From: Spirulina sp. CS-785/01
GTDB taxonomy: Bacteria; Cyanobacteriota; Cyanobacteriia; Cyanobacteriales; Spirulinaceae
DNA: 60,421 nt
Direction of reading: 5' to 3'
Assembly: GCF_028330525.1 (NCBI RefSeq)
Contig: NZ_JAQMSD010000120.1
Location: forward strand, 1-60,421
The position numbers and the translations under genes were made by a program. Within the stretch, counting starts at the first letter, position 1. Each line of letters begins with the position of its first letter. Shown in pieces: positions 10,920 through 11,736 of the stretch. The notes under the pieces are model-generated. The model did no database searches and was not told the origin of the DNA. It worked only from the letters and a program-made list of their open reading frames with translations.

Positions 10920-10952
10920 GGGGTAAGTATTCAGAGAATGTTACCTTTATAT

Positions 10953-11002
10953 GCCTTGGGTTAAAACCCAAGGCTAATAGCTGAAACCTGTTAAAACAGG
11001 TT
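10953..11002 (+). repeat. Double-hairpin repeat element, copy A
   Basis: Two adjacent hairpins, CCTTGGGTTAAAACCCAAGG and AACCTGTTAAAACAGGTT, are separated by about 10 bases. The conserved 5' flank is ACCTTTATATG. Further copies are at 22904-22954 (inverted) and 32647-32695. In this 307-base gap (10920-11226) I see nothing else except the terminator at 11099-11131. Confidence 0.85.
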
Positions 11003-11098: not shown

Positions 11099-11131
11099 AA
11101 AGGTGAGAACTTTAAAAGTTATCTCACCTTT
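11099..11131 (-). terminator. Terminator of the 50-residue protein gene
   Basis: AAAGGTGAGA and TCTCACCTTT pair perfectly, with further pairing (ACTTT/AAAGT) in the loop. On the minus strand the stem runs into five T residues. It lies about 95 bases past the stop of the small gene. Confidence 0.75.
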
Positions 11132-11226: not shown

Positions 11227-11379
11227 CTACCATTCAACCTGTTTTTTCGGATGGCCTAAGTCGCCAGAAAACGGTTGAACTCCAATGGGAGTGTAGGTGT
11301 CATCGTTGCGGCTGAAAATTCGTGCGATCGCTTCGGACAAATAATCGTTAACGTCTTCTACCCATTTAAACATATTCAT
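11227..11379 (-). CDS. Small (50-residue) cyanobacterial protein
   Basis: The ATG at 11377-11379 has an excellent ribosome site (GGAGGT, 8-base spacing). The frame runs 50 codons to TAG: it starts MNMFKWVEDVNDYLSEAIAR and has a C-terminal half with RIFSRNDDTYTPIGVQPFSG. The N-terminal half is an amphipathic helix; the rest is extended and polar. I recall short cyanobacterial proteins with a similar IFxPxDDxYPxxGVQPF motif that have no assigned function, so it is probably conserved. A good terminator follows, and a 350-base leader with tandem repeats precedes it. It stands alone between convergent or unrelated genes. Confidence 0.75.
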   Translation of the reverse strand: MNMFKWVEDVNDYLSEAIARIFSRNDDTYTPIGVQPFSGDLGHPKKQVEW

Positions 11380-11426
11380 AATGCCTAACCTCCAATAAAT
11401 CCGTATATATGCTCAGTGCTTATCAT

Positions 11427-11573
11427 TTGTGAGACTATGTTTGTGAGACTATGTGAGACTAGCTGCGAGACTAGCAATTCACCTAGCGATTCACTTAGGT
11501 CGATTCACTTAGGTCGATTCACTTAGGTCGATTCACTTAGGTCGATTTCAGGCGACCTGATTTCAGGCGACCT
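11427..11573. repeat. Tandem 14-15 bp repeats upstream of the small gene
   Basis: Three blocks: TTGTGAGACTATGT twice (11427, 11441), CGATTCACTTAGGT four times (11487-11542), and GATTTCAGGCGACCT twice (11544, 11559). They fill the 357-base gap between the small gene and pyrF-pyrE. The last 150 bases (11590-11736) are AT-rich and probably hold the small-gene promoter, which I cannot place. Confidence 0.9.
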
Positions 11574-11736
11574 GAGTTCACAACCTGAAACAACCGCTAC
11601 ACTTTCATTATTAGCAGATTTGCCCCACGAACGCCGTTATTTTAAGCAAATGCAATATTTTTTTGTATTGATTTGCATTACTTTGTTTCTATTAACATAA
11701 ATTTGTAAGAAAATGAGTCATTACGTTACAATAGTT

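What the first reader, a model, noticed from the sequence alone, without database searches (positions are those of the whole stretch)
11227..11379. A convincing 50-residue gene easily missed by annotation
It has a strong ribosome site, an amphipathic helix, a recognisable IFSRNDDTYTPIGVQPF motif and a perfect terminator on the same strand. Small cyanobacterial proteins often regulate enzymes or complexes, so it deserves attention.
Basis: partly seen in the sequence, partly recalled or inferred. Interest (0 to 1): 0.6.

Follow-up and report, generated by a model that had tools for sequence, protein, structure and literature searches.

The report
Small ATP synthase brake gene, AtpΘ
The 50-residue reading frame is a real gene, the local copy of atpT, whose small protein is known in a related cyanobacterium to stop the ATP synthase from running backwards and wasting ATP in the dark; it is a known kind of gene that the standard family libraries did not recognise.

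Summary
Window 11227-11379 (-) is a 50-codon gene with a strong Shine-Dalgarno site and a 3' hairpin. The protein is conserved in 191 of 195 sampled genomes of the order, its own included (188 by single-sequence search; 3 of the 7 misses by profile), and its relatives evolve under strong purifying selection (dN/dS 0.06-0.12 in six close pairs). [quoted passage not shown] Promoter primers printed for Synechocystis 6803 norf1 flank the homologue in a near relative at the published 465-nt spacing, 143-nt leader and 48-residue length. Pfam, NCBIfam and PHROGs gave no match.

Two additions. (1) An 18-nt element resembling the essential 6803 promoter element lies upstream; the predicted leader, about 220 nt, holds local tandem repeats. 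(2) Outside the window, some cyanobacteria carry a second form with a Nif11 domain before the AtpΘ core. The fusions tested form one clade; in one genome the gene lies beside an alternate F1F0-ATPase operon. No paper in the open-access library holds Nif11 with AtpΘ or Norf1.

The parts
11227..11379 (-). atpT coding sequence, 50 aa, AtpΘ (Norf1) orthologue
   Evidence: ORF; match in 188 of 195 genomes of the order, own included; 17/41 identical, no gaps, to the homologue of a Synechocystis 6803 near relative; dN/dS 0.06-0.12 in six close pairs of relatives
11389..11393 (-). Shine-Dalgarno GGAGG, 9 nt before the ATG
   Evidence: direct reading; 3 of 72 comparable ORFs in the window have such a site
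11099..11131 (-). hairpin, likely intrinsic terminator, 96-128 nt after the stop codon
   Evidence: 10-bp perfect stem; inverted repeat I1; fold z = -5.9
11662..11679 (-). AATGCAAATCAATACAAA, HLR1-like upstream element found before many atpT genes
   Evidence: 15 of 18 match to the element of L016, reached in 1 of 200 resampled upstreams; probably corresponds to the element essential in 6803 (PMC9241938). HLR1 identity is inference.
11607..11612 (-). predicted -10 box AATAAT (within TAATAAT 11613-11607); start of transcription expected near 11600
   Evidence: 66 nt from the element start; 66-68 nt in L003, L006, L014, L015 and L039, other spacings or no box elsewhere. Prediction only.
11380..11600 (-). 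predicted 5' leader, about 220 nt
   Evidence: inferred from the promoter prediction; 11380-11604 folds at z = -2.2, 4 of 200 shuffles as good
11487..11542 (-). four exact copies of a 14-nt repeat in the predicted leader
   Evidence: a 16-nt probe of it occurs nowhere else in the genome at up to 1 mismatch
11544..11573 (-). two exact copies of a 15-nt repeat in the predicted leader
   Evidence: family D4
11426..11475 (-). four imperfect copies of a 12-nt repeat in the predicted leader
   Evidence: families D2 and D3

Best explanation
The ORF is atpT, encoding AtpΘ (first described as Norf1). Its N-terminal amphipathic helix and conserved FxPxDDxYPxxGVQPFSGD tail bind the thylakoid FoF1 ATP synthase and stop it hydrolysing ATP when the proton gradient is weak, above all in darkness. 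The gene stands alone, with an RpaB/cyAbrB-type promoter element, a leader and a terminator. By analogy with Synechocystis, its level is set mainly by redox-dependent mRNA stability. Shown here: gene reality, family membership, gene anatomy, and an ATP synthase γ subunit without the chloroplast redox cysteines. Predicted here: promoter and start site. Inferred from the Synechocystis work: binding, inhibition and dark induction in this organism. Which part of the protein makes contact is my guess.
For: Match in 188 of 195 genomes of the order, own included, and 3 of the 7 misses have a profile match. In a 386-genome phylum sample the profile hits 129 genomes, all in the same class but one weak hit with a stop (G444, E = 0.0097). 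Identity to norf1: in L058 the two 6803 promoter primers printed in PMC5126843 match with 1 and 2 mismatches of 21, span 465 nt (published -328 to +137), and put the ATG 143 nt after the published start site, ahead of a 48-aa ORF (published 48 aa); the two probe primers match less well (7 mismatches each) but span 144 nt, 168 with the T7 tail as published. Window versus L058: 17/41 identical, 28/41 similar, no gaps. Purifying selection among relatives. Upstream element. One canonical γ subunit in the genome, cysteines only at 48 and 90, none in the regulatory region.
Against: No expression or binding data for this organism. The 6803 genome was not read (0 of 388 genomes carried the probe primer exactly), so the link runs through close relatives; in three of the five genomes of that genus the promoter primers do not both match. 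Two conserved prolines are replaced in the window protein (R24, T30). Gene neighbours are not conserved: tblastn of three neighbours against the roughly 100 held loci, with short flanks, gave nothing. No solved chain matches, and the predicted model is of low confidence. Four genomes of the order gave no match even by profile.
Confidence: 0.9

Rival explanations
1. It belongs to the AtpΘ family by descent but has drifted, so that it no longer inhibits ATP synthase strongly or acts on another target.
For: Two substitutions at conserved prolines, R24 and T30; only 41% identity to the Synechocystis form.
Against: The GVQPFSGD tail is intact and the helix is amphipathic. It is the only copy found in the genome: the other listed hit is E = 1.02 inside a longer ORF, and the profile finds one. 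The upstream element is kept.
Confidence: 0.07
2. Chance ORF in an intergenic transcript or regulatory RNA.
For: ORFs of this length are common: 72 of 45-80 aa in the window. The leader and 3' region hold repeats and hairpins.
Against: Frame, length and residues are kept across the order; synonymous changes far exceed replacements in close pairs; no Rfam family in the window.
Confidence: 0.01
3. The coding function is ordinary, but the repeat-rich leader makes this locus a locally evolved RNA switch that controls AtpΘ by alternative pairing (AGGTCG copies with CGACCT copies).
For: Repeats lie inside the predicted leader; the leader folds somewhat better than shuffles, z = -2.2; in 6803 the native leader together with the promoter is needed for dark induction (PMC9241938).
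Against: z is modest and tandem repeats alone can give it; the unit is unique to this locus in the genome, and the six other upstreams that I printed show no such repeats by eye, so covariation cannot be tested; in 6803 mRNA stability was traced to coding sequence or 3' region, not the leader.
Confidence: 0.1

Closest known systems
AtpΘ / Norf1 (atpT) of Synechocystis sp. PCC 6803
   Same: Length (50 vs 48 aa), amphipathic helix plus GVQPF tail, stand-alone gene with leader, upstream AT-rich HLR1-like element, 3' hairpin
   Different: Two conserved prolines replaced; predicted leader about 220 nt with tandem repeats instead of 143 nt; element predicted about 80 nt before the start site, against 57 nt in the 6803 relative, so the equivalence of the elements is not certain
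IF1 (mitochondria) and ζ subunit (Paracoccus), F1 inhibitor proteins
   Same: Separate inhibitory proteins that block ATP hydrolysis by F-type ATP synthase (PMC9241938 introduction; PMC9317440 passages)
   Different: No sequence match to any solved chain; analogous function only
Nif11-domain proteins (PF07862)
   Same: A second form of the AtpΘ core in other cyanobacteria carries this domain
   Different: The window gene has no such domain

Membership tests
AtpΘ (Norf1) | Sequence homology to Synechocystis 6803 norf1/atpT | tested here: met
   6803 itself was not found in the sample; its printed promoter primers anchor the orthologue in L058 at the published spacing, to which the window protein aligns 17/41 identical without gaps
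AtpΘ (Norf1) | Small amphipathic protein of about 48-50 aa | tested here: met
   50 aa, 5.85 kDa, pI 4.7, hydrophobic moment 0.57
AtpΘ (Norf1) | Wide conservation in cyanobacteria | tested here: met
   188 of 195 genomes of the order plus 3 by profile; 129 of 386 in the phylum sample; most matching genomes with one copy, some with two or three
AtpΘ (Norf1) | Own promoter with an AT-rich HLR1-like element about 45-60 nt before the start site, leader, and 3' hairpin | tested here: inconclusive
   hairpin and a similar element are there; the start site is only predicted and would put the element about 80 nt upstream
AtpΘ (Norf1) | Binds FoF1 ATP synthase and inhibits ATP hydrolysis | not testable with these tools
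   needs biochemistry
AtpΘ (Norf1) | Transcript accumulates in darkness | not testable with these tools
   needs RNA measurement
IF1 / ζ inhibitor families | Sequence homology to solved IF1 or ζ chains | tested here: not met
   single-sequence search; the only PDB match at E <= 10 is a DARPin at E = 1.8
Chloroplast-type γ redox switch (alternative control in this genome) | Cysteine pair (EICDINGXC) in the γ subunit insert | tested here: not met
   γ has cysteines only at 48 and 90

The most novel reading that the evidence does not exclude
AtpΘ is not one protein but a family of ATP-synthase brakes with at least two branches: the short form seen in the window, and an old second branch in which a Nif11 domain is fused in front of the AtpΘ core. 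The fused branch may serve a different enzyme, the alternate (N-type) F1F0-ATPase, or a different signal. The Nif11 part would then act as a docking or sensing domain rather than as the leader of a modified peptide.
Probability: 0.25. Interest if true: 0.6.

Novelty: new member of a known kind. Interest (0 to 1): 0.38.

Why it matters
It settles that the small ORF is a gene with a named role: the night-time brake on ATP synthase. The Nif11-AtpΘ branch offers a test of whether the brake was adapted to a second ATPase or a second signal.

Tried and rejected
Pfam, NCBIfam, PHROGs and PDB sequence searches gave no usable match for the 50-aa protein. Phage records gave no match; in viral contigs 30 stretches fitted one peptide pattern but none was confirmed as a relative. 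A 6803 probe primer found no exact match in 388 genomes of the order; the promoter primers, allowing mismatches, then located the orthologue in two of five genomes of the genus of G007 (L057, L058). Synteny as support was rejected. An HLR1 consensus is not matched exactly upstream in the window; the best is 13 of 16 positions, so the element is called HLR1-like only. Of 13 dN/dS pairs, three (L057/L059, L060/L061, L013/L064) gave unrelated-looking values because I set their coordinates wrongly and were dropped; four, three of them with the window, are saturated at silent sites and give no ratio; six remain. A repeat-based RNA switch was kept only as a weak rival. A terminator scan of relatives used an ad hoc search that missed some, so I drew no count from it. 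The upstream element was chosen by eye from these sequences (its string is that of L016), so the 27 of 55 upstreams reaching P <= 0.05 (55 kept of 79 found) include L016, near relatives and some circularity; and only 6 of the 27 have a -10-like box 66-68 nt on, the others having other spacings or none.

Full report
WHAT IS THERE. GGAGG stands 9 nt before the ATG. A hairpin with a perfect 10-bp stem follows the stop codon by about 100 nt; the region folds at -24.9 kcal/mol, z = -5.9, with 0 of 200 shuffles as good. The gene stands alone, 357 nt after the stop of a pyrF-pyrE fusion gene (NCBIfam NF004034) and 307 nt before an unnamed 195-aa ORF. Length alone proves nothing: the window has 72 first-ATG ORFs of 45-80 aa, 3 of them with a strong ribosome site.

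IT IS A GENE. A search with the 50-aa protein finds it in 188 of 195 genomes of the same order, the window's own included, at E <= 0.01. A profile from 40 rows (A1) finds 3 of the 7 misses, one with a stop reported in the match (G177); 4 remain without a hit. In a phylum sample of 386 genomes the profile hits 129, of which 128 lie in the same class; the exception, G444, is weak (E = 0.0097) with a stop, and is probably chance; three of the hits within the class are also weak, E 0.0016-0.0091. F22, G33, Q35, P36 and G39 are invariant in A1. Six close pairs of relatives give dN/dS of 0.06-0.12 (of 13 pairs three were misframed by me and dropped, four are saturated). Window against L003 is saturated at silent sites (pS 0.86) with pN 0.28.

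WHICH GENE. The family is AtpΘ. PMC5126843 (passages) describes Norf1 of Synechocystis 6803: 48 aa, strongly dark-induced, detected by FLAG tag, with primers printed. PMC9241938 (abstract, introduction and three further sections read) names the gene atpT and the protein AtpΘ. It credits the inhibition of ATP hydrolysis to its reference 17 (Song et al., Curr Biol, which I did not read), and gives a 143-nt leader and a 101-nt 3' region with a terminator-like hairpin. I could not read 6803 itself: its probe primer is absent from 388 sampled genomes. Five genomes of one genus were then searched. In L058 the two promoter primers match with 1 and 2 mismatches and span 465 nt, as published; the published start site then falls 143 nt before the ATG, and the ORF has 48 codons. 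The two probe primers match less well, 7 mismatches each, but span 144 nt, which with the 24-nt T7 tail is the published 168. L057 agrees to 1 nt; in the other three genomes the promoter primers do not both match. The window protein aligns to that of L058 over residues 1-41 without gaps, 17 identical and 28 similar. It departs from the family at R24 and T30, proline in 34 and 39 of 40 rows.

HOW IT WORKS. In Synechocystis AtpΘ accumulates in darkness and prevents the ATP synthase from hydrolysing ATP; control is partly by RpaB and cyAbrB proteins at the promoter and mainly by redox-dependent mRNA stability (PMC9241938; PMC13421787 passages). The window's genome has one canonical γ subunit, with cysteines only at positions 48 and 90 and none in the region of the chloroplast redox switch. 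It therefore lacks that switch, as expected of a cyanobacterium. AlphaFold2 gives one helix, residues 3-22, and a tail without secondary structure, at low confidence.

PROMOTER AND LEADER. An element ATTGCAAATATATACAAA (the string found at L016) recurs upstream of atpT: 27 of 55 upstream regions (window and L016 included, some close relatives left in) match as well as the best 5% of resampled versions or better. In L057, a near relative of 6803, the best match, 13 of 18 and not significant on its own (P = 0.065), lies at -200 from the ATG. Taking the 143-nt leader, that is -57 to -40 from the start site, which overlaps the stretch found essential in 6803 and likened to an HLR1 site. In the window it lies at 11679-11662 (15 of 18; 1 of 200 resamplings), 66 nt before AATAAT. 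In L003, L014, L015 and L039 the spacing is 68 and in L006 66; the other 21 of the 27 have other spacings or no listed box. L014 is the contig of Spirulina subsalsa and in the window's family. The predicted start is thus near 11600 and the leader about 220 nt, against about 57-75 nt by the same reckoning in L003, L014 and L039. Three tandem repeat sets, at 11426-11475, 11487-11542 and 11544-11573, fall in this leader and account for most of the extra length. The element would lie about 80 nt before the start, further than in 6803. A 16-nt probe of the 14-nt unit occurs nowhere else in the genome at up to one mismatch. The leader folds only moderately better than shuffles (z = -2.2). I read this as a local expansion, of unknown effect.

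A SECOND BRANCH OUTSIDE THE WINDOW. Seven named loci (L050-L056: two Nodosilinea, filamentous cyanobacterium CCP5, Phormidium FACHB-1136, Vasconcelosia, a Leptolyngbyaceae MAG, Lyngbya confervoides) encode proteins of about 96 aa: a Nif11 domain, a short linker and the AtpΘ core. All 14 of the 19 such proteins that I scanned pass Pfam's Nif11 cut-off (6, 8). The cores are homologous to AtpΘ over 34 columns (hhalign probability 99, E = 7e-18). In the 386-genome sample at least 14 of the 129 genomes with a match carry this long form (match beginning at profile position 10 or later in a frame of 96 aa or more); I fetched and read 12 of them, and G112 and G240 are judged by frame alone; other long frames were not read. 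Ten of the 14 also have the short form and four do not. On a quick tree of 53 cores the 13 fusions used (of 19 read) form one side of a branch, SH-aLRT 98, but only 41 columns were available, one fusion (L094) is a long branch, and I cut the fusion cores 4 residues shorter than the others. AlphaFold2 gives the Nif11 part as helices with better confidence than the AtpΘ part, which is below pLDDT 50. In L056 the fusion gene ends 30 nt from the γ gene of an alternate F1F0-ATPase operon (γ and α above the NCBIfam cut-offs; the b fragment, cut by the locus end, below it). None of the other 18 fusion loci, with flanks of 1-3 kb, shows those genes. The alternate γ occurs in 6 of 14 fusion genomes (one, G220, truncated and below cut-off) and in 12 of the 115 other genomes with an AtpΘ match (Fisher p = 0.005). 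This is not corrected for kinship, three of the six share a genus, and in none of the six is the fusion gene near the alternate γ (other contigs, or 440 kb away). Papers holding both Nif11 and AtpΘ, or Nif11 and Norf1: 0 and 0 in the open-access PMC library (wider searches listed none either).

VERDICT. The finding is sound and the interpretation good, but the gene is a member of a described family. What is new is modest: the identification, the leader expansion, and the Nif11-AtpΘ branch as a lead.

Noticed in passing
   Followed up: partly
L056:2788-6077: In Lyngbya confervoides BDU141951 the Nif11-AtpΘ gene converges, about 30 nt apart, on the tail (b, α, γ) of an alternate F1F0-ATPase operon.
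   Followed up: partly
window 11426-11573: Three adjacent tandem repeat sets in the predicted atpT leader; the 14-nt unit was found only here in the genome.
   Followed up: partly
G104:C49:289848-290269, G121:C3:3620405-3620817, G149:C94:4744-5456: Tandem duplicates, two or three copies, of the short atpT gene in one unnamed genus (g69).
   Followed up: no
L098, L099: Two genomes of family f41 have weak profile matches (E 0.0016 and 0.0075) ending in PPAIGEQPFTGD or PPAIGEQPYSGD, possibly a diverged AtpΘ; the other f41 genomes shown have no match, and not all genomes were shown.
   Followed up: no
window 10952-11002: Two small perfect inverted repeats (AACCTG-TTTTAA-CAGGTT and GCCTTGGG-TTTTAA-CCCAAGGC) between atpT and the next gene, read directly from the sequence.
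   Followed up: no
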